Assembly: GCF_900095385.1 (NCBI RefSeq)
Contig: NZ_FMID01000055.1
Span: 1-64,000 of the forward strand
Reading direction: 5' to 3'
From: Methanoculleus chikugoensis
Lineage (GTDB): Archaea; Halobacteriota; Methanomicrobia; Methanomicrobiales; Methanoculleaceae
DNA: 64,000 nucleotides
Numbering within the stretch: position 1 is the stretch's first letter; each line of letters opens with the position of its first letter. Below, one piece after another: positions 1,150 through 51,213 of the stretch. The notes under the pieces are model-generated. The model ran no database searches, had not been told where the DNA came from, and saw nothing but the letters and a program-made list of their open reading frames with translations. Position numbers and translations under genes: made by a program.

Positions 1150-1450
1150 CCCGCGTTCCAGCCCCAGACAGCAAAACTCGGAGTTGTCCCAGAACACCGT
1201 TACCGGGAGGGGGGCACCCGCTCGCACCTTGCGGTGCTCAAGCTCCCTCCGGTCGCACCTCCCCGGACCCTCGAAGAACTTCGTTCTTCTCATGCTCCTG
1301 ACCCGAAACCCTTCGGTTTTCTCCAGCTCCGGCCCTTCGGCCCATCGCACCCTTCGGCCAGTCGCACTCCCCGAGTGGCGATATGCGATGGTTCGTAGAA
1401 CCGGAGCAGGAGCACCGGAGGTGCGACATCCAATGGGAAGCCGTTTCACC
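1150..1450. repeat. Short-palindrome intergenic repeat (family 2, copy a)
   Basis: The stretch 1076-1614 has no convincing gene; ORFs here are arginine/proline-rich and match nothing. It contains a chain of short palindromes: GCACCTTGCGGTGC near 1227, GAACTTCGTTC near 1276, CCGAAACCCTTCGG near 1302, and GGCCCTTCGGCC near 1331. The CTCGCACC...GGTGCTCAA core recurs near 21448 and 26846 in this window. I read it as a dispersed intergenic repeat. Confidence 0.5.
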
Positions 1451-16556: not shown

Positions 16557-17393
16557 ATGACGAATACCATCACAACACCCGGAACAGAGCCACGCCTCTG
16601 GTTAGCAGTCCCCGCAGTCTCGTTTCTGGGAATCGGAATCGAACTGCTGCTCGCATCCGTCGCCTTTCCCTATGCCGTCTGGGCAGGTGTCGCAGGATGC
16701 GTGATAGCCTCGTGCATCCTCTGCTACCAGGCCTACCAAAAACCCCGGCGGGATCTCGTCTCGCTCTTCACGCCGCTCTTCGCGTTTCTCATCCTGGTCA
16801 TACCCAATGAGATCAGTTCGGGCGGTGTAATCGTGCAGACGGTCTTCGCGGCAACGATCACCTTCCTTGCAGTTCGGGTAGAAAAAGTGTTTAATGCGCC
16901 GAAACTACAGGAGAAGACAATGAAGCAGATGTTAAATGAATATATCGGCAGGATTGAGCCGCTCCTCGCCGTTATCGACGAGGAGACCGGCCACCTGGTC
17001 GCACAGTCCCTGCTGACGTATAAGTTCGGGCTTTATGGAAACGCGATGGAGAAGAGCACGGAGGCGCTTGCCCGGCTCGATGCGATCACTCCGCGCCCCG
17101 GAACCCTGGAGCGCGCGCTCCTGATCCTCCGGGAGCGTGCCGGCGGCTTCGCCGAGTCCCGGGTGACGACGAATCCCGAGCATCTCTTCACGGAGGAGGA
17201 CTACGACGATCTCGCCGTCCGTCTCGCAAAGGATCAGGTCGAAGACCCGACCGTTCTCGACCTCGACAACGCGCTGATCCTGCTCTACGCTGTCGGGATC
17301 GAGACCTCCCCCGACGACGAGCAGGCGCTGGAGGAGCACCAGCGCTTCATCATCCAGATCCTGGAAGGGTATAAAGAGAAGCTGGCCCGATGA
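16557..17393 (+). CDS. Membrane-anchored protein, unknown function
   Basis: About 278 residues from the ATG at 16557, which has AAGGA six bases upstream; another ATG lies at 16539. The N-terminal third holds about four hydrophobic segments (WLAVPAVSFLGIGIELLLAS, then VWAGVAGCVIASCILCY, LFTPLFAFLILVIP and VIVQTVFAATITFLAV). A soluble, mostly helical C-terminal domain (EKTMKQMLNEYIGRIEPLLA onwards) follows. No catalytic motif is seen. It follows the coiled-coil gene, so the pair may work together at the membrane; that is conjecture. Confidence 0.75.
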   Translation: MTNTITTPGTEPRLWLAVPAVSFLGIGIELLLASVAFPYAVWAGVAGCVIASCILCYQAYQKPRRDLVSLFTPLFAFLILVIPNEISSGGVIVQTVFAATITFLAVRVEKVFNAPKLQEKTMKQMLNEYIGRIEPLLAVIDEETGHLVAQSLLTYKFGLYGNAMEKSTEALARLDAITPRPGTLERALLILRERAGGFAESRVTTNPEHLFTEEDYDDLAVRLAKDQVEDPTVLDLDNALILLYAVGIETSPDDEQALEEHQRFIIQILEGYKEKLAR

Positions 17394-18187
17394 GCGGGCT
17401 GACCGGGGGGAGTTCTCCTCCGCGGTCTCAGTACGGTAGCGGTGCCTGTCGTCGCGGGGCGGCAGAAGTTGGGGTCATATCCCGGGGCGAACCGGGGCTC
17501 CACTCCTTTTTGGTCTCTACTCTCTAAGGCTCTCCCGGTAGCCCCCACCCAATCCTCCGGAGCTAGCCAGAGTCCCACTCTTTTTTCCAGCACCTCCCCG
17601 TGCAGTGGACCGTGGGGACATCGCCATTGGGGGAGGCGGCCTGCGGGGAGGGGGCTTGCCCCTCCCCTGTCTCTACACCGTGTATGACCTCTCGGTAGCC
17701 CCCACCCCGCCCGCGCTTCGCGCTCCTCCCCCACCCCGAGGGGCGGGGGCAGTGCGTGGCGATAGCCGGTGGGAAGCCGCATCTCTGGGAGCGCCCCGGG
17801 ACTCCGTTCTTCTCCTGAATCTCCCCGTACAGTGGACCGTGGGGATATCGCCATTGGGGGAGGGGCCGACGGGGAGGGGGGAGCAGCCCCCCTCCCCTGT
17901 CTCTACCGTGTAAGCCCTTTCGTCACCCCCACCCCGCCCGCGCTTCGCGCTCCTCCCCCACCCTCCGGGCGGGGGCAGTCATGGCGATACCCCCACGAAA
18001 TCTGTAAAAGGGGGCACTCGCGCACTCTTCTCTGGCCCCCTGATAGAACGAAATGTGGCCTTCGCCCCTCCGCGCGAGGCACTGAATGAATTTGCCCCTA
18101 AGGACGGGATAGCCGGGGACAGATAAAGGAAGGAGCCAATATCGAGAGACCCCGGGGTAGCCGAATGGCTGCTCCCGAAAAAAAGTA
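17394..18187. repeat. GC-rich dispersed repeat, locus 1 (two tandem units)
   Basis: This 794-base gap between converging genes has no credible ORF. It carries two tandem copies of a repeat, at 17603-17764 and 17830-17990 (227-base period), plus a degenerate copy from about 17490. Each unit has box A (CAGTGGACCGTGGGG ... ATCGCCATTGGGGG), a stem-loop B (GGGGAGGGGG-loop-CCCCTCCCC then TGTCTCTA) and part C (GCCCCCACCCCGCCCGCGC with hairpin GCGCTTCGCGC, then CTCCTCCCCC and GGGGCGGGGGCAGT) ending in TGGCGATA. TGGCGATA at the end is the inverse of TATCGCCA in box A. Confidence 0.8.
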
Positions 18188-21420: not shown

Positions 21421-21500
21421 GAGTGAACCGGGAGACGGGGACAGCTCGCACCTGACGGTGCTCAAACTCCGGTTCTACGAACCCTCGCACCCCCCACCAC
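21421..21500. repeat. Short-palindrome intergenic repeat (family 2, copy b)
   Basis: CTCGCACCTGACGGTGCTCAA followed by ACTCCGGTTCTACGAACCCTCGCACC shares the GCACC-GGTGC and GAAC-GTTC hairpins of the copies near 1227 and 26846. Confidence 0.5.
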
Positions 21501-26615: not shown

Positions 26616-27339
26616 CTCCACAGTAGTGCGTCGTGAAGTGTCAATAATGCATGGGGGTGTGGAGGGTATCGGGGGGTTTGGGGCAGTCGGCGAAGTGGAG
26701 AACTGGAGCATGAGTGGCTTGAGTCTTCAAGCGACGGACTATGCAACCTGTTCCAGTGGTCGTCTGGGCGTGCCTAGTATGTCCCAACGTCGGAACAACC
26801 GCAACGATGAAGGCCCCGTACGCTGGCCTGCGTGGACTGCGCACCTGACGGTGCTCATGCTCCTGCCCTACGGCCAGTCGCCAGTCCAAGACCTTCGGTC
26901 TTCTCCAGCGATGTCCCCTGGGGACATCGCCTATCGCCACGCACTGCCCCCGCCCCTCGGGGCGGGGGAGGAGGTCGGAGGCCGGGCGGGGTGGGGGCAC
27001 AGGTATAATCTTCAGAGGTAGAGACAGGGGAGGGGGGATGCTCCCCCTCCCCGTCAGCCTCTCCCCCAATGGCGATAGCCTGTGGAAATCCGTGTAAGGC
27101 ACGTGCGGTCGAGAACAATCCCGACACCCGTGGGTGCACCGCGTATACGGCGTATGGTGCACGGTATGCGACCGAGCAATCCGGGCACCAGTGGGTGCAC
27201 CGGTTGCACCCTGGCTGCTCGTCTGTCATCCCTCCCCTGAACCGGCAGTCTTCCCAGCATCTCTCCGGGCGGAAACTAAAACTATCTAAGAAAGAAACGC
27301 CATAGCACCGATCAGACAACGCTCCTGGAGGGACGGGAC
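26616..27339. repeat. GC-rich dispersed repeat locus 2 (inverted) and direct repeats
   Basis: This 724-base intergenic region between divergent genes has no credible ORF. A family 2 palindrome copy lies at about 26838-26910 (GCACCTGACGGTGC, CCTTCGG). One unit of the GC-rich repeat lies in inverse orientation at 26932-27077, from TATCGCCAC through the CCCCGCCCCTCGGGGCGGGG hairpin and the GGGGAGG/CCTCCCC stem to ATGGCGATA. Two imperfect 26-base direct repeats with core GTGGGTGCACCG follow at 27116-27141 and 27177-27202. Confidence 0.75.
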
Positions 27340-37516: not shown

Positions 37517-38035
37517 CGGCCTCCGCAGTCCAGCCCCCCCACGCCGTCTGTGCCGGAAGGAGAATACCCGTGTGCCCTTCTTCGGCAACCCCCACCCCGC
37601 CCGCGCCTCCGGCGCCCTCCCCCGCCCCCTCCCGGGGGCAGGGGCAGTCATGGCGATACCTGGTGAGCAGCCGTGCATGGGGGTGCTCACATCGTTTTAT
37701 CCAGCATCCTGTCTCCATCGCGTACGGCTCTCCTCCAGAGTCCCCCCCCCATACAGTGGACCGTGGGGACATCGCCATAAGGGGTAGGGCTGACGGGGAG
37801 GGGGAACTCGTTCCCCCTCCCCTGTCTCTACCGGGTAAGGTTCACCTTTTGTAGTCCCCACCCCGGCTTCCAGCACGAGGCTGCTACCAATGCAGATGAT
37901 GTATTTTGTAAACGGCGAAATTGCAGAAGAATCGGTGAAAAGGTTTGCACGGGGAGCGTAATCGCGGCATCCGGGGCCGAAACGTGCTCCCGAAGAGCGT
38001 GCGCATCCAGATGCGCCGGAAAAGATTAAGGTGGT
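37517..38035. repeat. GC-rich dispersed repeat, locus 3
   Basis: This gap lies between converging genes. Part C occurs at 37588-37659 (CCCCCACCCCGCCCGCGCC with hairpin GCGCCTCCGGCGC, then GGGGGCAGGGGCAGT ... TGGCGATA). Box A and stem-loop B occur at 37755-37830 (CAGTGGACCGTGGGGACATC; GGGGAGGGGGAAC-TC-GTTCCCCCTCCCC). A 23-codon ORF (37890-37961, MQMMYFVNGEIAEESVKRFA RGA) looks like a truncated gene start rather than a gene. Nothing else is seen. Confidence 0.75.
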
Positions 38036-50523: not shown

Positions 50524-51213
50524 GAAGATCTCCTGGATAACAGCTCGGCCCGTAACCTGATAAAATTATCAGTGTGATTATCCAAACATTGCAGGGCTGC
50601 ATCTGTTTTTTTGTCGGCCCATGTTCGCCGGATATTTACATCACCGGCGGAGTCTGTCGTTTCCCGTAGCCCGCGCTCCTGCCTCTATCGCGTAAGGCTC
50701 TATCTGTAGCCCTTTCCTCTGTCTCCGCCACACATGCTGTTATCTGTAGCCCCCACCCCGCCCGCGCTTCGCGCTCCTCCCCCGCCCACGAGGGGCGGGG
50801 GCAGTTATGGCGATATCCGGTGGAAAAACCATGTCCCGGGGCACACACCACACTTTTCAGCATCTTCCCATCCAGTGGACCGTGGGGGTATCGCCATTGG
50901 GGGTGGGGCTGACGGGGAGGGGGAGCATCCTCCTCTCCTGTCTCTATCGCGTAAGGCTCTATCGATAGCCCCCACCCCGCCCGGCCTTCGGCCTCCTCCC
51001 CCGCCCGCAAGGGGCGGGGGCAGTGCGTGGCGATATCCACAGAAAGCCGTGTACGGTTCTCCCCATCCTGTGGATCGTGGTGAGTATCGCTATTGGGTGA
51101 ACGACGTCCTGAAAGGACGGAGATCGAGCACTGAAGGTGCGAAGAGGGGGCGGGCGGGAGTGCGATGAGTGGGACGGCCGGATGAAGGTATTGAACTATC
51201 GGGGTTCCCGCGG
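50524..51213. repeat. GC-rich dispersed repeat, locus 4
   Basis: No gene is seen in these 690 bases. Part C is at 50743-50818 (hairpin GCGCTTCGCGC; CCCCGCCC...GGGGCGGGGGCAGT; TGGCGATATCC). A full unit A-B-C is at 50873-51037, where the first hairpin reads GGCCTTCGGCC. A degenerate box A is at 51067-51098. The copies keep the pairing of the hairpin while changing its bases. The reverse-strand frame through the region is arginine/proline-rich repeat sequence, not a protein. Confidence 0.8.

What the first reader, a model, noticed from the sequence alone, without database searches (positions are those of the whole stretch)
17603..17990. Dispersed GC-rich repeat family with conserved box and covarying hairpins
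At least four intergenic loci (17.6-18.0, 26.93-27.08 inverted, 37.59-37.83 and 50.74-51.10 kb) carry the same modular element: box A (CAGTGGACCGTGGGG...ATCGCCATTGGGGG), stem-loop B (GGGGAGGGGG...CCCCTCCCC) and part C with a tight hairpin and a G/C-rich stem. The tight hairpin reads GCGCTTCGCGC, GGCCTTCGGCC or GCGCCTCCGGCGC in different copies, and loop B varies with matching arms (AAC...GTT). Such compensating changes point to selection on structure, so it could be a structured RNA, a DNA hairpin for a nucleoid protein, or a non-autonomous mobile element. I know of no named family that matches.
Basis: partly seen in the sequence, partly recalled or inferred. Interest (0 to 1): 0.75.

Follow-up and report, generated by a model that had tools for sequence, protein, structure and literature searches.

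The report
Archaeal intergenic palindromic repeat family
A methane-producing archaeon and its relatives carry dozens of copies of a roughly 190-letter DNA repeat that can fold back on itself into a cloverleaf; it looks like a REP/ERIC-like intergenic repeat reshaped by copying errors at its own hairpins, not a proven functional RNA.

Summary
The window (Methanoculleus, archaea) holds four clusters of one repeat. The complete unit is about 190 bp: arm P, core TATCGCCA...TGGCGATA (about 146 bp), arm Q. It folds into one long stem with three side hairpins. The own genome has 63 exact C-ends. The family occurs in 34 of 35 genomes of the genus and in one neighbouring genus; partial relatives are scattered through the order.

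"Covariation, therefore selection on structure" is only partly supported. Covariation sits in two pairs of the tight hairpin plus one loop-closing pair. Hairpin template switching explains such changes without selection: loops occur in both orientations (14 of 35 have their reverse complement, 0 the reverse), two orthologous copies differ by a flipped loop, and cores are flipped between arms.

Best reading: a non-autonomous, DNA-level, ERIC/REP-like intergenic palindrome, found mainly between convergent genes (P = 8e-10). How it spreads is unknown: no target-site duplication, no Y1 transposase in the own genome, no autonomous copy. A new family of a known kind, with an unusually clear record of hairpin-driven mutation.

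The parts
17516..17551 (+). decayed fragment of an earlier unit (TCTCTAC...GTAGCCCCCACCC)
   Evidence: repeat family D9/D19; sequence
17595..17790 (+). complete unit 1: P arm 17595-17618, core 17619-17764, Q arm 17765-17790
   Evidence: 227-bp tandem period
17822..18012 (+). complete unit 2: P arm 17822-17845, core 17846-17989, Q arm 17990-18012; folds as one stem with three side hairpins
26836..26931 (-). hairpin-cassette repeat (second family) lying inside the P arm of the 26.9 kb unit; a P-arm remnant (ACGCTGGCC) was recognised by comparison with orthologues
26932..27101 (-). complete core 26932-27077 on the minus strand, with a Q arm at its B end (27078-27101): core flipped relative to the usual arm order
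37590..37680 (+). C-end fragment (tight hairpin GCGCCTCCGGCGC, C stem, TGGCGATA) with Q arm
37747..37867 (+). P arm and stem-loop B fragment (loop AACTCGTT), C module missing
50676..50712 (+). decayed fragment
   Evidence: D9
50749..50840 (+). C-end fragment with Q arm
50866..51058 (+). complete unit: P arm, core 50889-51035 (tight hairpin GGCCTTCGGCC), Q arm; absent from the orthologous place in G048
51062..51100 (+). decayed P-arm fragment (GTGGATCGTGGTGAGTATCGCTATTGGG)

Best explanation
It is a genus-specific family of non-autonomous dispersed repeats acting at the DNA level: an ERIC/REP/MITE-like intergenic palindrome of about 190 bp. Shown: the unit is an imperfect palindrome (arms CCCGGTACAGTGGACCGTGGGGA and TCCACTGGAAATCCGTGCACGGG around a core ending in TATCGCCA/TGGCGATA) that can fold, single-stranded, into a stem with three hairpins; copies are intergenic and favour convergent gene ends; presence, number and orientation differ between species at orthologous places; loops, cores and flanks are found inverted or mirrored, and second-family hairpin cassettes are found inserted in it. 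Inferred: new copies arise in tolerated intergenic sites through an unidentified activity working in trans or through replication errors; neighbouring copies multiply and are lost by unequal recombination; when one strand is exposed in replication the hairpins make the polymerase switch template, which flips loops and cores, mirrors flanks and restores pairing, so stems stay nearly perfect without needing selection for a product.
For: 63 C-ends in the own genome and 0-53 in relatives; intergenic with convergent regions enriched and divergent ones avoided, 44/42/7 against 23/105/50 for convergent/co-directional/divergent; presence and absence at orthologous loci; one extra tandem unit relative to G048; whole-unit palindrome; loop inversions 14 of 35 against 0 and 2 for controls and in an orthologous pair; core flips (P at C end 16, Q at B end 49 against 117 and 110); mirrored flanks; published precedent for template switching at hairpins (PMC8794818).
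Against: No clean empty site, no target-site duplication, no autonomous copy and no candidate transposase were found, so transposition is not demonstrated. The element's long conserved arms and near-invariant stems over a whole genus could also reflect a function.
Confidence: 0.7

Rival explanations
1. A structured RNA element: copies are transcribed at the ends of mRNAs and act as 3'-end stabilisers, processing sites or small RNAs, and selection on the RNA fold keeps the stems.
For: Lower folding energy than all shuffles (z -4.2 as RNA); location between gene 3' ends; double changes in the tight hairpin; G-T mispairs 44 against A-C 24 in four helices, the direction expected for an RNA of the + strand.
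Against: No consistent orientation to neighbouring genes; the DNA fold is at least as unusual on both strands (z -5.1 and -5.6); loops flip freely and cores flip strand; the copy number varies from 0 to 63; no Rfam match; the G-T excess is counted on non-independent cells.
Confidence: 0.12
2. A chromosomal DNA site: the palindrome or its G-runs (G-quadruplex-like GGGGGAGGGGCTGACGGGGAGGGGG) is bound by a nucleoid, replication or repair protein and is kept for that.
For: Four G-runs are kept in 49 of 60 copies and the G/C-rich stems are nearly invariant.
Against: Copy number differs widely between close relatives; copies come and go at orthologous loci; G-runs are also what an intact G/C hairpin gives; no protein was sought experimentally.
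Confidence: 0.08
3. A MITE of a DDE-type insertion sequence that has since been lost or was not met, with the outer CCCGTGCA/TGCACGGG as its terminal inverted repeats.
For: Terminal inverted repeats, size and intergenic location fit.
Against: No direct repeats at the ends above chance (63 copies, P = 0.31); no transposase gene between P and Q arms in the loci read.
Confidence: 0.08
4. A REP-type element moved by a Y1 (RAYT or IS200/IS605) transposase, as the first reader suggested checking.
For: Hairpin-forming substrate, no target-site duplication, intergenic.
Against: Y1_Tnp (PF01797) is absent from the own genome, which has the most copies, and matches in only 7 of 35 genus genomes, mostly ones with few copies; the unit is far longer than the 20-40 bp given for REPs (PMC3733652).
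Confidence: 0.02

Closest known systems
ERIC (enterobacterial repetitive intergenic consensus)
   Same: Long imperfect palindrome, intergenic, tens to hundreds of copies that vary between species and strains, often at 3' ends of genes, regarded as a non-autonomous MITE (PMC10969869; the 127-bp length and internal insertions are from memory)
   Different: No sequence relation is claimed; archaeal genus; about 190 bp; three side hairpins; core found in both orientations between two different arms
REP / BIME elements with RAYT transposases
   Same: Extragenic palindromes, hairpin-forming, dispersed in many copies
   Different: REPs are 20-40 bp with a GTAG or CGTC tag and, for GTAG, an associated Y1 transposase (PMC3733652); here the unit is ~190 bp and the own genome lacks Y1
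BOX elements of pneumococcus
   Same: Modular arrangement of hairpin boxes (from memory)
   Different: No shared sequence known; here the modules close into a single stem and flip as a block
Template-switch mutations in RNA-gene hairpins (PMC8794818)
   Same: Loop inversions and several compensatory changes attributed to one event
   Different: There loop inversions were rare because loops are constrained; here they are frequent and the inversion extends to the whole ~146-bp core and to flanks

Membership tests
REP/RAYT element | associated Y1 (RAYT-type) transposase in the genome | tested here: not met
   PF01797: 0 matches in G000, 7 of 35 genus genomes
REP/RAYT element | short (20-40 bp) palindrome with GTAG/CGTC tag | tested here: not met
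   unit ~190 bp, ends CCCGGTACA / TGCACGGG; definition from PMC3733652
MITE (classical, DDE-type) | terminal inverted repeats | tested here: met
   outer CCCGTGCA/TGCACGGG and inner TATCGCCA/TGGCGATA
MITE (classical, DDE-type) | target-site duplication | tested here: not met
   63 P-Q copies, shared words at the ends no longer than in shuffled pairings, P = 0.31
MITE (classical, DDE-type) | parent insertion sequence with the same ends | tested here: inconclusive
Intergenic palindromic repeat (ERIC-like), as a kind | multicopy, intergenic, imperfect palindrome with copy number varying between species | tested here: met
ERIC family proper | sequence homology to the ERIC consensus | not tested
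   no ERIC sequence was compared; nothing suggests it
Rfam RNA family | match at gathering score | tested here: not met
   window hits are three tRNAs and one eL15 leader only
Structured RNA | transcription with defined ends | not testable with these tools
   no transcriptome data available

The most novel reading that the evidence does not exclude
Arms P and Q with the TATCGCCA inverted repeats are the recognition site of an uncharacterised archaeal activity acting on folded single strands (attC-like or hairpin-transposing), which moves the core, inverts it between the arms and inserts the second-family hairpin cassettes at fixed places; the repeat would be the visible substrate of a new recombination system.
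Probability: 0.1. Interest if true: 0.75.

Novelty: new member of a known kind. Interest (0 to 1): 0.42.

Why it matters
It delimits a repeat family that occupies much of the long convergent intergenic space of Methanoculleus, a genus important in biogas plants. It gives a natural record, over dozens of related genomes, of loops, cores and flanks being flipped at hairpins. That bears on a practical question: compensatory changes in a repeated hairpin are not by themselves proof of a functional RNA. If an enzyme turns out to move the element, that enzyme would be new.

Tried and rejected
Y1/RAYT transposase as mobiliser: searched, absent in the own genome. Target-site duplication: tested, none. 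Autonomous copy: inspected the fetched loci in which the P arm is not followed by the core (second-family cassettes or chance matches) and the out-of-genus matches in G015, G098, G045, G147, G148: only short hairpin relatives; no transposase recognised. Clean empty sites: orthologous loci in up to 30 genomes each; where the element is missing the whole intergenic stretch differs, so no insertion point could be read. Viral origin: the exact 20-mer is not in the viral contig collection. Intrinsic terminator: no T run follows the hairpins (sequence). RNA against DNA by mispair type: G-T 44, A-C 24, too weak to decide. A covariance model was not built because it would not separate selection from template switching.

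Full report
WHAT WAS CHECKED. The four clusters are there. The genome holding the window (G000, 2.65 Mb, 99.7% complete) gives 53 matching pieces to the reported 391 bp and 63 exact matches to the C-end GGGCAGTN{1,2}RTGGCGATA (the backward control pattern gives 0). Named contigs with the C-end 20-mer are labelled Methanoculleus (for example M. sediminis, strains MH98A, FWC-SCC3, Afa-1) or unnamed Methanomicrobiales/Euryarchaeota assemblies, so the window is from Methanoculleus or a very near relative.

ANATOMY. Aligned copies show one unit: arm P CCCGGTACAGTGGACCGTGGGGA; TATCGCCA; T; GGGGG[A/T]GGGG; CTGAC or similar; stem-loop B GGGGAGGGGG-loop-CCCCCTCCCC; TGTCTCTACC; about 20 variable bases; CCCCCACCCCRCCC; tight hairpin (GGCCTTCGGCC, GGCCTCCGGCC, GCGCTTCGCGC, GCGCCTCCGGCGC); TCCTC; C stem CCCCCGCCC...GGGCGGGGG; CAGTGCG or CAGTCA; TGGCGATA; arm Q TCCACTGGAAATCCGTGCACGGG. 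Conservation falls to background within about 10 bases outside the arms, apart from a weak purine-rich consensus before P and a linker conserved in tandem arrays. The complete unit of 17820-18012 folds into one long stem closed by the arms and TATCGCCA/TGGCGATA, with B, the tight hairpin and C as side arms; no shuffle folds as well with RNA or DNA parameters.

SHORT FORM. In G098, a genome of another family, and at one Methanoculleus locus (L376) the core is only the palindrome around stem B, without the tight hairpin and C stem. The two hairpins, linker CTC(C) and end CAGTGCG of the C module resemble the second repeat family described under 'noticed' (two hairpins, linker TCAAACTCC, end CAGTCGC). 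I infer, without a formal test, that the C module is an old cassette of that kind inserted in the short form.

DISTRIBUTION. 34 of 35 genomes of the genus match, own genome included. Exact C-ends run from 0 to 63 per genome, 42 in G080 of a sister genus, and at most one elsewhere in 232 genomes of the order. Partial relatives (arms or stem B) appear in genomes of 11 of 40 genera of the order. The class search returned the same 232 genomes, so nothing outside the order was tested that way.

PLACE. With a simple codon-usage gene finder, element-bearing intergenic stretches of 150 bp or more are 44 convergent, 42 co-directional, 7 divergent; stretches without it 23, 105, 50 (Fisher test, convergent against divergent, P = 8e-10). 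They are also longer (medians 635-790 against 316-380 bp), as expected for inserted or accumulated repeats. Orientation to co-directional neighbours is not consistent.

TURNOVER AT ORTHOLOGOUS PLACES. Three window loci and four others were followed in up to 30 genomes each with their neighbouring genes. The element is present in some, absent in others, in either orientation, single or multiple. At 50.7-51.1 kb the own genome has one complete unit more than G048 between the same TGGCGATA and TCCACAGAAAGCC. At 17.5-18.0 kb the array of the own genome lies where relatives G056 and G050 have an intact MATE-type transporter gene (G056: PF01554, 445 aa, E = 3.3e-59), whose first codons are still visible before the array. 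Clean empty sites were not found.

HAIRPIN-DRIVEN CHANGE. Three scales were seen. Loop: of 35 distinct non-palindromic B loops, 14 are also present as reverse complement, none as reverse, 2 as complement; L372 (G056) and L376 (G050), almost identical over about 380 bp, differ by CTCG against CGAG in the B loop and by an inserted hairpin cassette of about 40 nt. Core: P lies at the B end 117 times and at the C end 16 times, Q at the C end 110 and at the B end 49; among full copies P-Q 63, Q-P 14, Q-Q 16, P-P 4. Flank: in L239 and L241 both arms are Q-like and the flanks beyond are mirror images; in L411 a second P arm with its flank lies inverted on the far side. Template switching at hairpins leaves such footprints and can install compensatory changes in one event (PMC8794818).

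COVARIATION. On 60 distinct copies with a 43-pair structure, 91.8% of cells pair (shuffled 89.2%), cells with changes on both sides are 54 (18.3), the score is 0.086 (0.046), each above all 500 shuffles and well above the slid versions; but pairs with any double change are 5 (4.0; 125 shuffles as high). The signal is two adjacent pairs of the tight hairpin (18 of 60 copies swapped) and the loop-closing pair of B. The hairpin has essentially two states, so the number of independent events is unknown. The GGGGG[A/T]GGGG/CCCCCACCCC helix is not kept perfect: 38 of 60 have A opposite A. The structure is real as a property of the DNA; selection for it is not shown.

MOBILITY. Y1 transposases, the enzymes of REPs and IS200/IS605, are absent from the own genome and most relatives (control genomes gave hits as expected). 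Direct repeats at the ends are not above chance. No autonomous element was met. How copies reach new loci is the open part. My commitment: DNA-level non-autonomous repeat, about 0.7; identity of the mover unknown.

COMPARISON. In kind it is nearest to ERIC and other prokaryotic MITE-like repeats (PMC10969869). It fails two tested features of REP/RAYT elements and one of classical MITEs, so it is not filed under either. Searches of open-access papers for repeats in Methanoculleus found none describing it. A survey of prokaryotic satellites lists families with 45- and 51-bp repeats in M. marisnigri (PMC6749651), which do not fit a 190-bp palindrome or a 227-bp period by length; sequences were not compared.

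LIMITS.

Noticed in passing
window 1224-1264, 21448-21488, 26841-26881; L179, L242, L372, L299 and many others: A second dispersed repeat family: cassettes of two short hairpins with TTC/TAC-type loops, e.g. GCACCTTCGGTGCTCAAGCTCCGTTCCTACGGAACGTCGCA, often in strings and repeatedly inserted inside the element described here (P arm|TATCGCC, after CTCCTC in part C, in stem B). Its GTCG end resembles CGTC-tagged palindromic repeats (PMC3733652). In one search three window copies against 0 expected.
   Followed up: partly
L248, L253, L254, L281, L286, L406, L412 (intergenic): A third repeat: palindromes CTCACGCGAAGCCGCGAAGAACGCGAAGG...CTTCGCGTTCTTCGCGTGAG, in some orthologues with the centre flipped (L281 against L286).
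   Followed up: no
window 17393-17520 and L209/L211: In the own genome and G048/G049 the repeat array follows the first codons of a MATE-type transporter gene that is intact in G056 and G050: gene loss with the array in its place.
   Followed up: partly
L267 2140-2560 and L170 2980-3260: A subfamily with other arms (CAGTGTATCGATGGGGAATCGCCCC, and GTGGAATTAGCAGGAAGGTTCTCGCCTGAAACCGGGTG as linker) shared at 92-96% between a Methanoculleus genome (G055) and one of another family (G015).
   Followed up: partly
L172, L173 (G148, G147, another family of the order): Repeats with the same B hairpin (GGGGAGGGGGAGAATCCCCCTCCCC) but other flanks (CACTGGCCCTATCGC...GCCACAGCGGCGGGGCGTCAGCGCCGGGAGCGTCACCGTGAGATGAGTGCGG), apparently another palindromic family.
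   Followed up: no
G078 (whole genome): A genus genome with 19 Y1 transposase matches, many broken, but only one exact C-end of this element: the two do not go together.
   Followed up: no
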